A stretch of 11,705 bases of DNA from Anaerolineaceae bacterium (lineage in GTDB: Bacteria; Chloroflexota; Anaerolineae; Anaerolineales; Anaerolineaceae): assembly GCA_003448875.1 (NCBI GenBank), contig DLXG01000160.1, forward strand, positions 1 through 11,705. Reading direction: 5' to 3'. Made by a program: the position numbers and the translations under genes. The notes beneath the pieces were generated by a model. The model worked only from the letters and a program-made list of their open reading frames with translations, was not told the origin of the DNA and did not search any database. Positions 6,748 through 10,924 of the stretch are shown here, one piece after another (within the stretch, counting starts at the first letter, position 1; every line of letters begins with the position of its first letter).

Positions 6748-6769
6748 GTCAACTCATCCTTAAGTAACT

Positions 6770-6793
6770 ATATATGAACATGTATTCATATAT
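6770..6793. promoter_or_regulatory. ArsR/SmtB-type operator
   Basis: Nine-base inverted arms ATATATGAA (6770-6778) and TTCATATAT (6785-6793) flank a 6-bp centre. The sequence closely resembles SmtB/CadC/ZntR-family 12-2-12 operators, with the ATGAA/TTCAT core. It covers the predicted start site and touches the -10 of the repressor-ATPase promoter, so bound repressor would block transcription. Confidence 0.85.
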
Positions 6794-6819
6794 TATATTC
6801 TACAGGAAATCTTTGTCAA
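6792..6819 (-). promoter_or_regulatory. Sigma-70 promoter of the metal efflux operon
   Basis: On the minus strand TTGACA (6819-6814) and TATAAT (6797-6792) both match consensus exactly, with a 16-bp spacer. The operator palindrome overlaps the -10 and the start site. Such a strong promoter under tight repression is usual for metal efflux operons. Confidence 0.88.
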
Positions 6820-6926
6820 CCCCTTTCACCGACTCGCGCCCGATTATGACTTTTGTCACTTGAAATACGGTTTATTGTCATTATTCTTATTAATGGGATG
6901 GTTTACCTGACTTAACCAGCCGACAA

Positions 6927-7015
6927 TTTCCTCCGATCCATCAACTCCCCCCGGGATAGATGGACGATAGGGCATGAGAGGCAACTTTCATCGCCTGCCG
7001 TTTTGCAAAGGAGGA
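6927..7015 (+). ncRNA. Moco/Tuco-type riboswitch aptamer
   Basis: A Moco-RNA-like aptamer, the candidate sensor of molybdenum or tungsten cofactor. The sequence CGCCTGCCG-TTTT-GCAAAGG (6992-7011) matches the conserved CGCCTCCCG...AAAGG end that I recall from the E. coli moaA leader. Before it, GGC-ATGA and TCAT-C-GCC (6971-6994 region) form the stem with a GAGGCAACTT loop, comparable to the GAAGAAATGA loop in E. coli. A second stem pairs TCCATC (6937-6942) with GATGGA (6959-6964), with an inner TCCC/GGGA hairpin. The closing stem is TCCTCC (6929-6934) with GGAGGA (7010-7015). It lies upstream of a tungsten-type oxidoreductase, so the tungsten-cofactor subclass is likely. Assignment is by recalled motif similarity and context; a covariance model search would settle it. 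Confidence 0.78.
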
Positions 7016-7052
7016 CAACCCGTTCCAACCAACGGGAAGTGTCCTCTTTTTT
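7011..7052 (+). terminator. Riboswitch expression platform: intrinsic terminator
   Basis: GAGGACA (7011-7017) pairs with TGTCCTC (7040-7046), with an inner CCCGTT/AACGGG stem, followed by six T residues (7047-7052). Bases 7011-7015 are also the right arm of the aptamer closing stem, so aptamer and terminator cannot both form. Ligand binding should therefore allow read-through into the oxidoreductase gene. Confidence 0.85.
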
Positions 7053-7198
7053 GTTGCTAAGAACCACCACCTTTTTGTCCCAAAATTATTTCAAGCAAGA
7101 AGGAGGGAAAAAAGCAGGCACAATTCCTAACCAAACGAACATAATCCAACCCGCCCTTACTTAATTCAGATTCCCAAACCGCCAAAAAGGAGGAACAC

Positions 7199-8953
7199 AT
7201 GTACCTAGTAAGAGTCAATATGACCAACCGCACCTATCAGGTGACCGAGGTACCGGAGAAGTATAAATACTTGGCCGGGCGCGCCTTGACCTCCAACATC
7301 GTCGCCGATGAGGTACCCCCGCTTGCCCACCCGCTCGGCCCCAACAACAAATTGATTTTCTCCCCCGGTTTTGTAACCGGCACCAGCGCGCCAACCGCGG
7401 CCCGCATTTCCGTCGGCGGCAAATCGCCGCTGACCGGCGGCATCAAGGAAGCCAATGCAGGCACGTCGTGGGGCGCCGATCTGGCCGTCATGCAGATTCG
7501 CGGGTTGATCATCGAAGGGCAGCCGGAAGAGAAAGACAAATTCTGGGGCCTGCACATCACCTGGGATGGCAAACCCAAAGTTGAATTCTTTGATGCCACC
7601 GCCTATACCAAACAGCCTCTTTCCAAGGTATACCCGCCCATTTATGAAAAGTTTGGTGAAAGGGTTTCGGTTTGCAGCGTTGGCGCAGCCGCAGAATACG
7701 GTTACTGCAACTCCGGGGTTTGCTTCAACGATCAGTCCAAACGGCCCTCCCGCTACGCCGGCCGCGGCGGTCTGGGAGCGGTGATGGCCTCAAAAGGCGT
7801 CAAATTCATCGTGCTCGACCGGCAGGGCGCCCCCGGCGTGGAGATCGCCGATAAAGCCCTCTTTGAAGAAGGCCGCAAGAAGATGATTGACGCCCTGCGC
7901 ACCCACGCCATCACCAAGCCCAAAGGTGGGCTCAACTCTTACGGCACGGCGATTCTGATCAACATCATGAACGAGGCCGGCGGTCTGCCGACCAAGAACT
8001 TCAGCAGCGGGCGGTTTGAAGAAGCCCCCAAGATTGCCGGTGAGGCCATTTTCGAAACCAACAAAGTACGCAAAGGCAAGGAAATCTTCAACCATGCTTG
8101 CAGTCCGGGCTGCATCATCCAGTGCTCCAACACGGTCTACGCCGAAGATGGCAGTGAGATTACCTCTTGCCTGGAATACGAATCGGCCTGGTCACTGGGC
8201 GCCAACTGCGGCATCAGCAATCTGGATGACCTTGCCATGCTCAACCACCTGTGCAATGAATACGGTTTGGACACCATCGAGACCGGCACAACCCTCGCGG
8301 TAGCCATGGAGGCGGGTGTCATTCCGTTTGGCGACAGCAAAGCCGCCATCAATCTGGTACACGAGATGGGCAAAGGCACCCCGCTTGGGCGCATCCTCGG
8401 CTCCGGTACCGAAACCACCGGCCGAGTGTACGGCATTACACGGGTGCCCACGGTCAAGGGCCAGTCCATTCCGGCATACGAACCGCGCGCCGTCAAGGGC
8501 ATCGGCATCACTTACGCCACCTCCACGATGGGCGCCGATCACACCGCTGGCTACACAATCGCCCCTGAAATTCTGGGTGTGATGGGCAAGGTAGATCCGC
8601 TTTCACCCGAAGGTAAAGCCGCCCTCAGCCGCGCCTTCCAGGCTACCACCGCCTTTATTGACTCCAGCGGCCACTGCCTCTTCATCGCCTTCGCCATTCT
8701 GGATATTGCCAGCGGTTATCAGGGCATGATCGAGGAGATCAACGGCGTGTTGGGCACCAACTGGACCGCAGATGATGTGGTCAAATTCGGTGCCGAGGTA
8801 CTCAAAGTCGAGCGCAAGTTCAATGAAGCCGCCGGTATCACCAAAGCCGCCGACCGGCTGCCGGAGTTTATGAAGCAGGAACCCCTGCCTCCGCACAACA
8901 CCGTCTTTGATGTGCCGGATGAAGCGCTGGATGCGGTGTACGCCGAACTCTGA
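7199..8953 (+). CDS. aor: Tungsten-type aldehyde:ferredoxin oxidoreductase
   Basis: A 584-residue member of the AOR family: oxidises an aldehyde to the carboxylic acid (or the reverse) using a bis-pyranopterin tungsten centre and one [4Fe-4S] cluster, with ferredoxin as partner; cytoplasmic. Family features include YLAGRALTSNIVADE (24-38), ARISVGGKSPLTGGIKEANA (68-87), RYAGRGGLGAVMASK (185-199), YEPRAVKGIGITYATSTMGA (427-446) followed by DH (His448), and the cluster ligands Cys301, Cys305, Cys309 and Cys493 (SSGHCLF). The cluster motif is C-x3-C-x3-C, not the C-x2-C-x3-C of Pyrococcus AOR. Glu326/Glu328 are candidates for the active-site Glu. ATG 7199 has AAGGAGG 5 nt upstream. It is preceded by a riboswitch and followed by a maturase and two MoaD-like genes. 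No ferredoxin-like or flavin subunit gene is adjacent. The aldehyde substrate is unknown. Confidence 0.94.
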   Translation: MYLVRVNMTNRTYQVTEVPEKYKYLAGRALTSNIVADEVPPLAHPLGPNNKLIFSPGFVTGTSAPTAARISVGGKSPLTGGIKEANAGTSWGADLAVMQIRGLIIEGQPEEKDKFWGLHITWDGKPKVEFFDATAYTKQPLSKVYPPIYEKFGERVSVCSVGAAAEYGYCNSGVCFNDQSKRPSRYAGRGGLGAVMASKGVKFIVLDRQGAPGVEIADKALFEEGRKKMIDALRTHAITKPKGGLNSYGTAILINIMNEAGGLPTKNFSSGRFEEAPKIAGEAIFETNKVRKGKEIFNHACSPGCIIQCSNTVYAEDGSEITSCLEYESAWSLGANCGISNLDDLAMLNHLCNEYGLDTIETGTTLAVAMEAGVIPFGDSKAAINLVHEMGKGTPLGRILGSGTETTGRVYGITRVPTVKGQSIPAYEPRAVKGIGITYATSTMGADHTAGYTIAPEILGVMGKVDPLSPEGKAALSRAFQATTAFIDSSGHCLFIAFAILDIASGYQGMIEEINGVLGTNWTADDVVKFGAEVLKVERKFNEAAGITKAADRLPEFMKQEPLPPHNTVFDVPDEALDAVYAEL

Positions 8954-9069: not shown

Positions 9070-9116
9070 TATCTTATTCACTTGAACATCTTTGTTTGCA
9101 AACCCGGCGCAGCCCT

Positions 9117-10301
9117 ATGAAAATTAAACTTGATCAGGACGGCAACCTGAATCTCCCACTATCTTTTTTCCAACGGCGCAATTTACCCACTCCGCTGGAA
9201 TTCTGGCTGTTTGAACGGGAAGGTGAACCCATTCTTTTACCCCGCCTGCCCAATTTGCATAAGTTATACATTGAAGTCACCACCGGTTGCAATTTGCAAT
9301 GCCGCTTTTGCATGCGCAACATCTGGGATGATCCGATTGCGTTAATGACGCAGGAAATCTTCGATGCTGTTGCCGCCCGGCTGCCTTTTCTGCCCGAACT
9401 GGAAGAAGTGATTTTTACCAGTTTTGGCGAACCGCTCACCCACCCCAAAATTCTCGGCATGATTGAAACCTTCACCAGCCGCGGTTTGCGAGTAACCCTG
9501 GGCTCGAATGGCATTTTGCTCACCCCCAAAATCGTCACTGAACTGATCAAACTGGGGGTTTACCGCATCATGGTTTCCATTGACGGTGCCCAGGCCGAAA
9601 CGTTTCACGATTTACGGGGTGCCAATCTTCAACAAATCATTTCCAATTTGGAGCAGATGCAGGAGTTAAAGAGACGCTTCTCCACCCGTCTGCCCGAATT
9701 GGGTATTGAATTTGTCATTCTCAAATCCAATGCCGGTGAACTGCCCGCGCTGGTACGGCTGGCTGCCCGGCTGGGTGCCGCGCGATTGATCGTCAGTAAC
9801 GTGCTGGCTTACACCGAAGATATGGTGGATCAAACTCTGTACAGTTATGCTCCGATTGATTCCGTCAAAGGCTTTGGTTTCCCCGATTTAGGTTCGGGTT
9901 GGTGGTTATGGAATTTCATGGAAATGCCCCGAATGCACTGGGGCGCTGAACGGCACTGCCGTTTTGTCCACAGCCGCGCAGCCGTGGTGGGCTGGGATGG
10001 CGGGGTTTCTCCCTGTTACGCGCTTTCACATAACTATTCATATTACACGCTGGACGGGCGCAAGAAAAAAGTCAATCGTTATGTGTTTGGGAACGTCACC
10101 CAAACCCCGCTGGATGAAATCTGGATGGCAGAAGAGTATATGCAATTCCGCAGTGAAGTGGCCGTCTATCATTACCCTTCCTGCCCGGATTGTGATTTAC
10201 GCAGTACCTGTGACTTGCGTGAGATCAATGAAGGCTGCTGGGGAACCAATCCTTCCTGTGCTGATTGTCTCTGGTCTCAAGATATCATTCGCTGCCCATG
10301 A
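9117..10301 (+). CDS. Tungsten cofactor oxidoreductase radical SAM maturase
   Basis: A 394-residue radical SAM/SPASM protein matching the maturase family that accompanies tungsten oxidoreductases; thought to help make or insert the tungsten cofactor, though the chemistry is unproven. Residues 1-42 (KIKLDQDGNLNLPLSFFQRR...EPILLP) resemble an AbrB/MazE-like swapped-hairpin domain. The radical SAM core follows: CNLQCRFC (Cys58, Cys62, Cys65) binds the SAM [4Fe-4S] cluster, FTSFGEPLTHP (100-110) and VTLGSNG (126-132) are standard motifs. The SPASM part has Cys281, Cys300, Cys356, Cys359, Cys365, Cys374, Cys381, Cys384 and Cys393, enough for two auxiliary clusters. ATG 9117 lacks a clear Shine-Dalgarno; an in-frame TTG at 9096 has none either and adds seven unusual residues. 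The stop overlaps the next start by 4 nt (ATGA). Confidence 0.9.
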   Translation: MKIKLDQDGNLNLPLSFFQRRNLPTPLEFWLFEREGEPILLPRLPNLHKLYIEVTTGCNLQCRFCMRNIWDDPIALMTQEIFDAVAARLPFLPELEEVIFTSFGEPLTHPKILGMIETFTSRGLRVTLGSNGILLTPKIVTELIKLGVYRIMVSIDGAQAETFHDLRGANLQQIISNLEQMQELKRRFSTRLPELGIEFVILKSNAGELPALVRLAARLGAARLIVSNVLAYTEDMVDQTLYSYAPIDSVKGFGFPDLGSGWWLWNFMEMPRMHWGAERHCRFVHSRAAVVGWDGGVSPCYALSHNYSYYTLDGRKKKVNRYVFGNVTQTPLDEIWMAEEYMQFRSEVAVYHYPSCPDCDLRSTCDLREINEGCWGTNPSCADCLWSQDIIRCP

Positions 10302-10537
10302 AAGTTAAGGTCAAACTTTACGCTACGTTTAGCCGCTATCATCCCGGCACGCTGGCAGGCACACCTTTTGAAGTGGAACTGCCGGAAGGTTCAACCCTGA
10401 AAGACTTAATCAACCAGCTGGAAATTCCTGAAAGTGAAGTCAAAGTTTGTTTCGTCAACGCCCGCATTCAAGAGATGGATGCACCTTTGAATGACGGCGA
10501 CGATGTTGGCATCTTTCCGCCTGTAGGAGGTGGCTAA
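10298..10537 (+). CDS. MoaD/ThiS-family sulfur carrier protein (Gly-Gly end)
   Basis: A 79-residue ubiquitin-like protein with a beta-grasp fold. In the MoaD family the C-terminal Gly-Gly is activated by an E1-like enzyme (MoeB/ThiF) and carries thiocarboxylate sulfur for pterin dithiolene synthesis. Here the sequence starts MKVKVKLYATFSRY, has FEVELPEGSTLKDLINQL (27-44) and DGDDVGIFPPVGGG at the end, with the expected terminal glycines. The ATG overlaps the maturase stop by 4 nt, and the next gene begins directly after the stop, so three genes are translationally linked. No moaE, moaA or moeB is nearby, so it either feeds general pterin synthesis or serves a cofactor step special to the tungsten enzyme. 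An upstream in-frame TTG (10265) is rejected because it would lie inside the maturase. Confidence 0.88.
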   Translation: MKVKVKLYATFSRYHPGTLAGTPFEVELPEGSTLKDLINQLEIPESEVKVCFVNARIQEMDAPLNDGDDVGIFPPVGGG

Positions 10538-10924
10538 TTGAATACCATCACCGTAGATACCTGGTTATATGGCGAACTGGCACGTTTTGGCGGTAATCCT
10601 GAGGAGCGCATTTTTGCCAACCGCAAGGTGAGTTTGCCAGAAGGATCGCGATTGCAGGATTTGCTCAATATTCTCGGAATGCGAACCGAGGAGCGCGGCA
10701 TTACCTTCATCAACGGCCAGCTGAGCGCGATGCCCGGCCTCCAACCTGATCTGGATCATCCGCTCCACGATGGCGACCGGGTGGCTTTCTTCCACTTACG
10801 TTCGATGTGGCCATTCCAGTACCGTCATGGCGTCACCATGATTCAGGAAATGCAAAAAGCCATCATCGAAACCGATCAGATGGGGCTGCACCACGCATAC
10901 AGTAAGGATCAGCCAAAAGAATAA
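10538..10924 (+). CDS. Atypical MoaD-like protein without C-terminal Gly-Gly
   Basis: A 128-residue protein whose first 87 residues look like a MoaD/ThiS beta-grasp domain: VDTWLYGELARFGG (6-19), VSLPEGSRLQDLLNILG (31-47), ITFINGQLSAMPGL (55-68) and HDGDRVAFFHL (76-86). Where MoaD ends in Gly-Gly, this protein continues with RSMWPFQYRHG and an Ala/Met/His-rich helix-like tail of about 40 residues. It cannot act as a normal sulfur carrier. The start is a TTG (10538) right after the previous stop (TAATTG); it is supported by AGGAGG (10525-10530) located 7 nt upstream. There is no later ATG before the conserved domain. It may be a partner for the preceding MoaD or the maturase, or bind the oxidoreductase. 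The function is inferred from context only. Confidence 0.8.
   Translation: MNTITVDTWLYGELARFGGNPEERIFANRKVSLPEGSRLQDLLNILGMRTEERGITFINGQLSAMPGLQPDLDHPLHDGDRVAFFHLRSMWPFQYRHGVTMIQEMQKAIIETDQMGLHHAYSKDQPKE

What the first reader, a model, noticed from the sequence alone, without database searches (positions are those of the whole stretch)
6927..7052. Moco/Tuco riboswitch wired as an ON switch for a tungsten oxidoreductase
The right arm of the aptamer closing stem (GGAGGA, 7010-7015) shares five bases with the left arm of the terminator (GAGGACA, 7011-7017). The two structures exclude each other, so ligand binding should prevent termination and turn on the enzyme that uses the cofactor. This is the opposite sense from switches that shut off cofactor synthesis. 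The aptamer is short and may belong to the tungsten subclass.
Basis: partly seen in the sequence, partly recalled or inferred. Interest (0 to 1): 0.75.

Follow-up and report, generated by a model that had tools for sequence, protein, structure and literature searches.

The report
Cofactor-sensing RNA switch, ON for tungsten enzyme
A stretch of RNA in front of a probable tungsten enzyme gene in a Bellilinea bacterium looks like a known cofactor-sensing switch, but it is built to turn the gene on when the cofactor is present, and the same layout is kept in many related bacteria.

Summary
Rfam's Moco/Tuco aptamer matches 6919-7028 above its gathering score. The P3 stem is missing, as in the putative tungsten subclass. 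P1 pairs 6929-6934 with 7010-7015; the same 3' strand lies in the 5' arm of an intrinsic terminator (7007-7050, -22.3 kcal/mol, z -4.6, then a U run). The gene is an aldehyde ferredoxin oxidoreductase (AOR); the organism is a Bellilinea species (Chloroflexota).

Comparison supports ON wiring. The aptamer precedes 44 of 80 related AOR genes. An overlapping terminator was found in 41 of 46 distinct aptamer-bearing AOR leaders. At the variable P1 position the shared strand covaries with both partners. Transport and cofactor-synthesis leaders surveyed are mostly OFF-wired; a second ON group (13 of 13, one by eye) precedes iron-sulfur molybdoenzyme operons.

Limits: xanthine- and formate-dehydrogenase-type leaders are not ON (0 of 6), and a Syntrophaceae class hardly shows this design (1 of 29 labelled enzyme leaders). 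The ligand is inferred; no experiment was done. It is a new variant of a known riboswitch class, not found in the open-licence papers searched.

The parts
6847..6858 (+). TGACTTTTGTCA palindrome just before the -35 hexamer, possible regulator site
   Evidence: Read from sequence; kept in Bellilinea caldifistulae (alignment). Function inferred.
6860..6887 (+). Candidate promoter TTGAAA - 16 nt - TATTCT; start of transcription expected near 6894
   Evidence: Consensus scan 9 of 12 (11 sites found against 6.8 expected, so weak alone); both hexamers conserved in B. caldifistulae.
6919..7028 (+). Moco/Tuco riboswitch aptamer match (RF01055), P3 absent
   Evidence: 39.9 bits, gathering score 36, E 9.9e-7.
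6929..6934 (+). P1 closing stem, 5' arm UCCUCC
   Evidence: Rfam alignment; six of six pairs.
6937..6964 (+). P2 hairpin, without the 11-nt GAAA-tetraloop receptor seen in many OFF aptamers
   Evidence: Alignment A2 and its structure; regex count.
6970..6996 (+). P4 hairpin with GCAA (GNRA-type) tetraloop
   Evidence: Rfam alignment, fold, A2 structure.
7010..7015 (+). P1 closing stem, 3' arm GGAGGA: the shared switching strand
   Evidence: Pairs with 6929-6934 or with the terminator 3' arm.
7007..7050 (+). Intrinsic terminator hairpin, 5' arm 7007-7017 and 3' arm 7040-7050; U run 7047-7052
   Evidence: -22.3 kcal/mol, z -4.56.
7100..7106 (+). SD-like AAGGAGG with no start codon at normal spacing
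   Evidence: Sequence; GGAGG between terminator and gene in 20 of 44 AOR leaders against 3.7 expected.
7187..7193 (+). Ribosome binding site AAGGAGG of the AOR gene
   Evidence: Sequence, 5 nt before ATG 7199.
7199..8953 (+). Aldehyde ferredoxin oxidoreductase, 584 aa
   Evidence: PF02730 E 4.9e-50 and PF01314 E 5.2e-83; nearest solved chains 9mqx, 1aor, 9g7j, 8c0z.
9096..10301 (+). Tungsten cofactor oxidoreductase radical SAM maturase
   Evidence: TIGR04317, 398.4 bits against cut-off 380.
10265..10537 (+). MoaD/ThiS-like sulfur carrier
   Evidence: PF02597 E 1.6e-13.
10538..10924 (+). Second ThiS-like protein
   Evidence: PF02597 E 5.5e-5.

Best explanation
This is a P3-less member of the Moco/Tuco riboswitch family with a transcriptional ON expression platform. 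RNA polymerase starts near 6894 and makes the aptamer; P1 can form as soon as 7015 is transcribed. Without ligand, P1 gives way to the more stable hairpin 7007-7050, which shares its 3' strand, and transcription stops at the U run after about 158 nt. With the cofactor (most likely the tungsten cofactor) bound, P1 is held, the terminator lacks its 5' arm, and the operon for AOR, its radical SAM maturase and two ThiS-like carriers is transcribed. The cell thus makes the enzyme only when its cofactor is at hand. Shown here by sequence: aptamer, overlap, conservation, covariation, gene association. Inferred: start site, ligand, and ligand-dependent read-through in the cell.
For: Rfam match above gathering score with P3 absent. 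Overlapping terminator 7007-7050. Up to the end of the P1 3' arm the best fold of the window RNA contains P1; with the terminator added the free fold puts all six P1 3' bases into the terminator and beats the P1-forced fold by 5.8 kcal/mol here, and by a median of 8.45 (range 0 to 27.3) over the 42 AOR rows with a called hairpin. Own model R1 finds the aptamer in 44 of 80 related AOR loci, 46 matches above 48 bits. Overlapping hairpin of at most -12 kcal/mol before a U run: 42 of 46 AOR rows against 102 of 920 shuffles; 12 of 13 CISM rows against 30 of 260; 19 of 110 supply rows against 144 of 2200. At -18 or below: AOR 41 of 46 against 35 of 920. Three-way covariation at P1 position 4 in 42 rows (P1 5' arm, shared strand, terminator 3' arm): C-G-C 18, T-A-T 9, A-T-A 2, G-C-G 1. 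In the same survey 57 of 110 supply leaders are OFF-terminator and 29 are called translational. Genome G194 holds an ON AOR leader and an OFF supply leader.
Against: No ligand binding or termination was measured. Five of 46 distinct aptamer-bearing AOR leaders lack the called terminator: L158, L169 and L156 keep an overlapping hairpin by eye but a poor U run; L119 and L151 (seen again as L357) have none I accept. L164 keeps the 3' strand and, by eye, a terminator but no recognisable aptamer. The rule 'enzyme = ON' is not general: 3 of 3 xanthine-dehydrogenase-type leaders are OFF, 0 of 3 formate-dehydrogenase-type are ON, and in the class of a Syntrophaceae MAG 1 of 29 labelled enzyme leaders passes the ON test. 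Twelve of 110 supply leaders are called ON; by eye L040, L049 and L068 are antiterminators miscalled, the rest were not resolved. The hairpin test is lenient (11% of AOR shuffles pass at -12). The leaders share ancestry, so counts are not independent.
Confidence: 0.8

Rival explanations
1. Same ON switch, but the ligand is the molybdenum cofactor, or molybdopterin or another intermediate common to both metals, so the switch reports pterin cofactor supply rather than tungsten.
For: Missing P3 as a mark of tungsten specificity rests on correlation only (Regulski 2008, section 11). ON leaders before molybdoenzyme operons come with P3 in some and without it in others (sequences printed). A 2024 paper says the exact Moco-related ligand is still unidentified (PMC10845959, passages).
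Against: The gene is an AOR with a tungsten-type maturase beside it, and AOR aptamers almost all lack P3 (P1-to-P1 length 79-95 nt in 45 of 46 rows; L171 at 111 nt has an extra hairpin).
Confidence: 0.3
2. A constitutive or otherwise controlled attenuator: the aptamer is a relic or responds weakly, and the terminator only lowers expression.
For: No binding data for a P3-less member were seen in the passages read; L164 suggests an aptamer can decay while the terminator stays; 36 of 80 related AOR loci have no accepted aptamer match and the AOR tree needs about 11 gains or losses.
Against: The aptamer core is nearly unchanged between the two Bellilinea species while the terminator arms changed, and the shared strand covaries with both partners across genera.
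Confidence: 0.08
3. A ribosome- or protein-dependent antitermination leader in which the SD-like AAGGAGG at 7100-7106 or a leader peptide sets the outcome.
For: SD-like GGAGG in 20 of 44 AOR leaders (3.7 expected); L118 has a short ORF after it (read).
Against: The element lies downstream of the terminator, so it is not transcribed when termination is decided; aptamer-less AOR leaders such as L115 and L121 also carry it, so it is separate.
Confidence: 0.04

Closest known systems
Moco RNA motif / Moco riboswitch RF01055 (E. coli moaA type, P3 present)
   Same: Same aptamer fold: P1, P2, P4 with GNRA loop, P5 and conserved core.
   Different: E. coli moaA: P1 holds the ribosome binding site and the cofactor represses (PMC2408646, part of results and conclusions read). 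Here P1 competes with a terminator and the cofactor should activate; P3 and the 11-nt tetraloop receptor are absent.
P3-less Moco RNAs proposed to sense the tungsten cofactor (Tuco/WCo)
   Same: No P3; precedes a gene for a tungsten-type enzyme. Regulski et al. report 58 of 176 motifs without P3, that all four motifs with GCAA loops lack the receptor, and both SD and terminator platforms.
   Different: The sections and passages read do not describe an ON platform sharing P1 with the terminator. Their abstract does not name Chloroflexota among the hosts.
Transcriptional ON riboswitches such as adenine or glycine (mechanism recalled; an adenine title seen in a reference list)
   Same: Ligand-stabilised helix excludes the terminator by sharing one strand.
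   Different: Different aptamer and ligand.
E. coli torCAD 5' UTR, proposed bis-MGD riboswitch (PMC10845959, passages)
   Same: Cofactor is proposed to be needed for expression of a molybdoenzyme operon, possibly through termination.
   Different: The authors state that its sequence is not conserved with the moaA leader; no Moco aptamer is described there.

Membership tests
Moco/Tuco riboswitch aptamer (RF01055) | Covariance-model score at or above gathering threshold | tested here: met
   39.9 against 36 bits.
Moco/Tuco riboswitch aptamer (RF01055) | P1, P2, P4, P5 around the conserved core | tested here: met
   28 of 30 model pairs standard in the window; in P5 one pair is G-C where most A2 rows have C-G, a change on both sides.
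Moco/Tuco riboswitch aptamer (RF01055) | GNRA loop on P4 with receptor in P2, or GCAA loop without receptor | tested here: met
   GCAA and no receptor. By a loose regex 40 of 46 AOR rows have GCAA or GUAA and 0 of 46 the receptor; 66 of 110 supply rows have GAAA with receptor.
Moco/Tuco riboswitch aptamer (RF01055) | Binds molybdenum or tungsten cofactor | not testable with these tools
   Direct binding was not shown for the E. coli member either.
P3-less (tungsten cofactor) subclass | P3 stem absent | tested here: met
   P3 columns deleted in the Rfam alignment; direct P2-P4 junction in A2.
P3-less (tungsten cofactor) subclass | Gene or organism uses tungsten cofactor | tested here: inconclusive
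   AOR plus TIGR04317 maturase; three AFOR_C genes in the genome. Metal content not measurable here.
Transcriptional ON riboswitch | Terminator 5' arm shares the P1 3' arm, U run follows | tested here: met
   7007-7052; 41 of 46 distinct AOR leaders.
Transcriptional ON riboswitch | Both alternative helices maintained by covariation | tested here: met
   Triples at P1 position 4 in 42 rows.
Transcriptional ON riboswitch | Ligand raises read-through | not testable with these tools
   Needs a transcription assay.
Aldehyde ferredoxin oxidoreductase | AFOR_N and AFOR_C domains, full length | tested here: met

The most novel reading that the evidence does not exclude
In Chloroflexota the Moco/Tuco aptamer has become a two-way system: OFF before transporters and cofactor synthesis, ON before AOR and iron-sulfur molybdoenzyme operons that use the cofactor. 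The AOR group uses a distinct, shortened tungsten-specific aptamer (no P3, GCAA/GUAA loop, no 11-nt receptor) as a dedicated feed-forward gate, so a tungsten enzyme is made only when its finished cofactor exists.
Probability: 0.4. Interest if true: 0.7.

Novelty: new variant of a known kind. Interest (0 to 1): 0.55.

Why it matters
The Moco-family platforms described in the passages I read repress or are left unassigned. An ON version tied to cofactor-using enzymes gives a positive read-out (read-through) for the still unproven ligand, and ready-made pairs of ON and OFF leaders, with and without P3, to test whether P3 sets molybdenum or tungsten specificity. It also suggests that anaerobic Anaerolineae gate tungsten enzymes by cofactor supply.

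Tried and rejected
Rejected readings: an OFF switch (here the strand complementary to P1 3' is the terminator 3' arm, not its 5' arm as in the OFF leaders); a chance hairpin; a lone oddity.

Led nowhere or corrected: an earlier wiring script mislabelled AOR leaders (4 OFF-term, 4 TL, 5 unclear, 33 ON of 46), partly because spurious hairpins ran through the U run; one search uses one overlap test for all groups and their shuffles, with a relaxed U-run rule chosen after I had seen the AOR leaders. The TL label was withheld from AOR rows by rule, so TL counts do not compare groups. My automatic P3 caller left rows unassigned and gave five 'P3+' AOR calls (gaps 11-14) that I judge false by eye; L171 (unassigned there) has a real extra hairpin. 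The Fisher test is not used: rows are related and labels were later revised. L267 was scored OFF by script because its Rfam hit was truncated; by eye it is ON, which makes CISM 13 of 13.

Rows dropped before counts: L058 (sub-threshold match), L113 and L117 (same loci as L032 and L036), L132 (identical to L131), L151 (fewer than 60 nt of leader after the aptamer; retested as L357, no overlap found). After the counts I saw that L246 and L172 are the same locus (contig length 79039), so the 46 AOR rows are 45 distinct leaders, 41 ON; adding L151 gives 41 of 46. The duplicate is still inside the counts. The 100 class-wide loci are the best-scoring matches outside the family in the list, in list order, with three second copies of close pairs skipped (on G512, G246 and G233); that list itself was capped. 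They are not a random draw, so low-scoring AOR-type aptamers are under-represented. Of 48 matches listed, 35 were examined. Gene classes come from BLAST clusters with one or a few members annotated by Pfam, not from every gene.

Literature: nine searches in open-licence PMC papers; in what I saw no paper states an ON-wired Moco or Tuco riboswitch. Subscription papers, the 2007 motif paper (not held) and all supplements were not seen. PMC2408646: abstract, the first part of results, sections 11 and 12 and passages; PMC12121620, PMC9943018, PMC3766115, PMC9481103, PMC9971707, PMC9495176, PMC7266159, PMC11477304, PMC10845959: passages only; others: listings.

Full report
What is there. The window is an 11,705-base contig of a draft genome (77% complete). 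Its AOR protein is 96% identical to that of Bellilinea caldifistulae GOMI-1 (L113); that contig has the same length as the G007 contig and G007 is listed as same genus, so the source is a Bellilinea species (Anaerolineaceae, Chloroflexota). Divergent from a heavy-metal P-type ATPase and ArsR gene stands a leader of about 300 nt, then AOR (7199-8953), a tungsten cofactor oxidoreductase radical SAM maturase (9096-10301) and two ThiS/MoaD-like proteins.

The aptamer. Rfam's Molybdenum family (RF01055) matches 6919-7028 at 39.9 bits (gathering 36), with P3 absent. It is the only RF01055 match found in this draft genome, which also holds moaA, three AFOR_C genes and a PBP_like_2 protein. The score is probably low because this subtype has a GCAA loop on P4 and no 11-nt receptor in P2. 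In the loose regex count, 40 of 46 AOR rows carry GCAA or GUAA, and 109 of 110 supply rows carry GAAA.

The overlap. P1 is 6929-6934 with 7010-7015. The terminator is 7007-7017 with 7040-7050, upper stem 7019-7024/7031-7036, U run 7047-7052. When only the aptamer is present the best fold contains P1; once the terminator is present the free fold moves all six P1 3' bases into it and is 5.8 kcal/mol below the P1-forced fold. Ligand-free RNA should therefore terminate by default, and a ligand that holds P1 should prevent it.

Relatives with the same gene. Eighty loci encoding relatives of this AOR were fetched, the best 80 of a capped list. A covariance model built from 22 P3-less aptamers of the family (R1) finds the aptamer in 44 of 80 loci at 48 to 74 bits (46 matches; one more at 11.8 bits ignored), each upstream of the AOR. 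Four of the 36 without a match have under 350 nt upstream and cannot be judged. With the family leaders and two class-wide ones, and after removing duplicates, 46 distinct aptamer-bearing AOR leaders were looked at; 41 have a hairpin of -12 kcal/mol or better whose 5' arm takes the P1 3' arm or the P5-J-P1 strand and which is followed by a U run (counting in Tried and rejected). Shuffling the downstream sequence reaches this in 102 of 920 trials, and -18 in 35 of 920 against 41 of 46 observed rows. In about 16 of 42 rows the terminator also takes the P5 3' strand, as in GCGCAAAGGAG with CTCCTTTGCGC.

Covariation. Among 42 rows the fifth base of the shared strand occurs as G, A, U or C with matching changes on both sides: C-G-C 18, T-A-T 9, A-T-A 2, G-C-G 1 as P1 5' arm - shared strand - terminator 3' arm; the rest are C-G-T 5, C-G with no terminator pair 5, C-A-T 1 and T-G-C 1 (one duplicate row included). 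The sixth base pairs with the terminator in 38 of 42 but with P1 in only 19 of 42, so that P1 pair is weak.

Contrast. In 147 family genomes, 41 carry RF01055 matches; in 396 class genomes, 156. Of 195 leaders classified together: supply genes (ABC, ECF-like, MoeA, MoaC and others) 57 OFF-terminator, 29 translational, 12 called ON, 12 unclear of 110; other genes 11 OFF, 4 translational, 5 unclear of 20; AOR 42 ON, 4 unclear of 46; iron-sulfur molybdoenzyme (CISM) operons 12 ON and one mis-scored of 13; xanthine-dehydrogenase type 3 OFF of 3; formate-dehydrogenase type 1 OFF, 1 translational, 1 unclear of 3. In OFF leaders the terminator 5' arm (such as GCTCCTTTCC) is complementary to the P1 3' strand, so P1 release allows an antiterminator. 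The CISM group was annotated from L215, L197, L236, L239, L264, L281 and L196. Both P3-bearing and P3-less aptamers occur there by eye. So ON wiring goes with two gene groups, but not with all enzymes.

Outside Chloroflexota. Of 155 genomes in the class of a Syntrophaceae MAG, 41 have RF01055 matches. I examined 35 of the 48 listed matches and five loci from other genomes. In the 35, 29 leaders precede genes labelled as enzymes (22 formate-dehydrogenase type, 1 molybdopterin oxidoreductase, 6 AOR) and 1 (L349) passes the ON test, barely (-12.3 kcal/mol). Their control may be translational; I did not resolve it. The AOR tree of 74 proteins (43 with aptamer, 31 without; six loci left out) needs 11 changes between the two states (bootstrap 10-12, shuffled mean 24); the aptamer-bearing rows are Chloroflexota except L151, labelled Coprothermobacterota, which lacks the terminator (L357).

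Literature. Regulski et al. 2008 (PMC2408646) describe P3-less motifs, terminator and SD platforms and genes that use the cofactor; an ON platform is not stated in what I read. A 2022 survey lists tandem Moco and Wco riboswitches (PMC9481103, passages). PMC10845959 (passages) proposes that bis-MGD is needed for torCAD expression through a different leader. Nine searches (listed in Tried and rejected) showed no ON-wired Moco or Tuco riboswitch; they cover open-licence papers only.

Verdict.

Noticed in passing
window 7100-7106; also L113, L114, L116, L117, L119, L126, L130, L133, L136, L147, L152, L167: SD-like AAGGAGG, often AAAGGAGGTG, between the terminator and the AOR start without a start codon at normal spacing; GGAGG in 20 of 44 AOR leaders against 3.7 expected. 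Aptamer-less AOR leaders such as L115, L121 and L123 have it too. It may stabilise the mRNA like Stab-SD elements (recalled) or mark a lost leader ORF (L118 has a short ORF there).
   Followed up: partly
window 6847-6858: Palindrome TGACTTTTGTCA next to the candidate -35, conserved in B. caldifistulae; possible Crp/Fnr-type site (recalled resemblance).
   Followed up: no
window 6767-6797: AT-rich imperfect palindrome around ATATATGAACATGTATTCATATAT beside a 12-of-12 consensus promoter on the - strand, probable operator of the divergent ArsR/P-ATPase pair.
   Followed up: no
L341-L355 and L361-L380: P3-less-sized aptamers stand before formate-dehydrogenase-type and AOR operons without an overlapping terminator; in several the P1 3' strand can pair just upstream of an AAAGGAG site, which hints at translational control.
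   Followed up: partly
L209, L241, L256: OFF-wired leaders before xanthine-dehydrogenase-type molybdoenzyme genes, against the enzyme = ON pattern (only L209 annotated by Pfam, the others by cluster).
   Followed up: partly
L045, L050, L069, L079: Long aptamers (151-155 nt hits) whose P1 3' arm GGAGAA serves as the SD of a solute-binding-protein gene (L079: PBP_like_2), a compact translational OFF design.
   Followed up: partly
G512:C292, G246:C6, G233:C88, G151:C28 (one search list): Pairs of RF01055 matches within a few hundred bases on one strand: tandem Moco-type aptamers in this class.
   Followed up: no
L131/L132: Two divergent, identical AOR copies in Levilinea saccharolytica, each with its own aptamer of equal score.
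   Followed up: no
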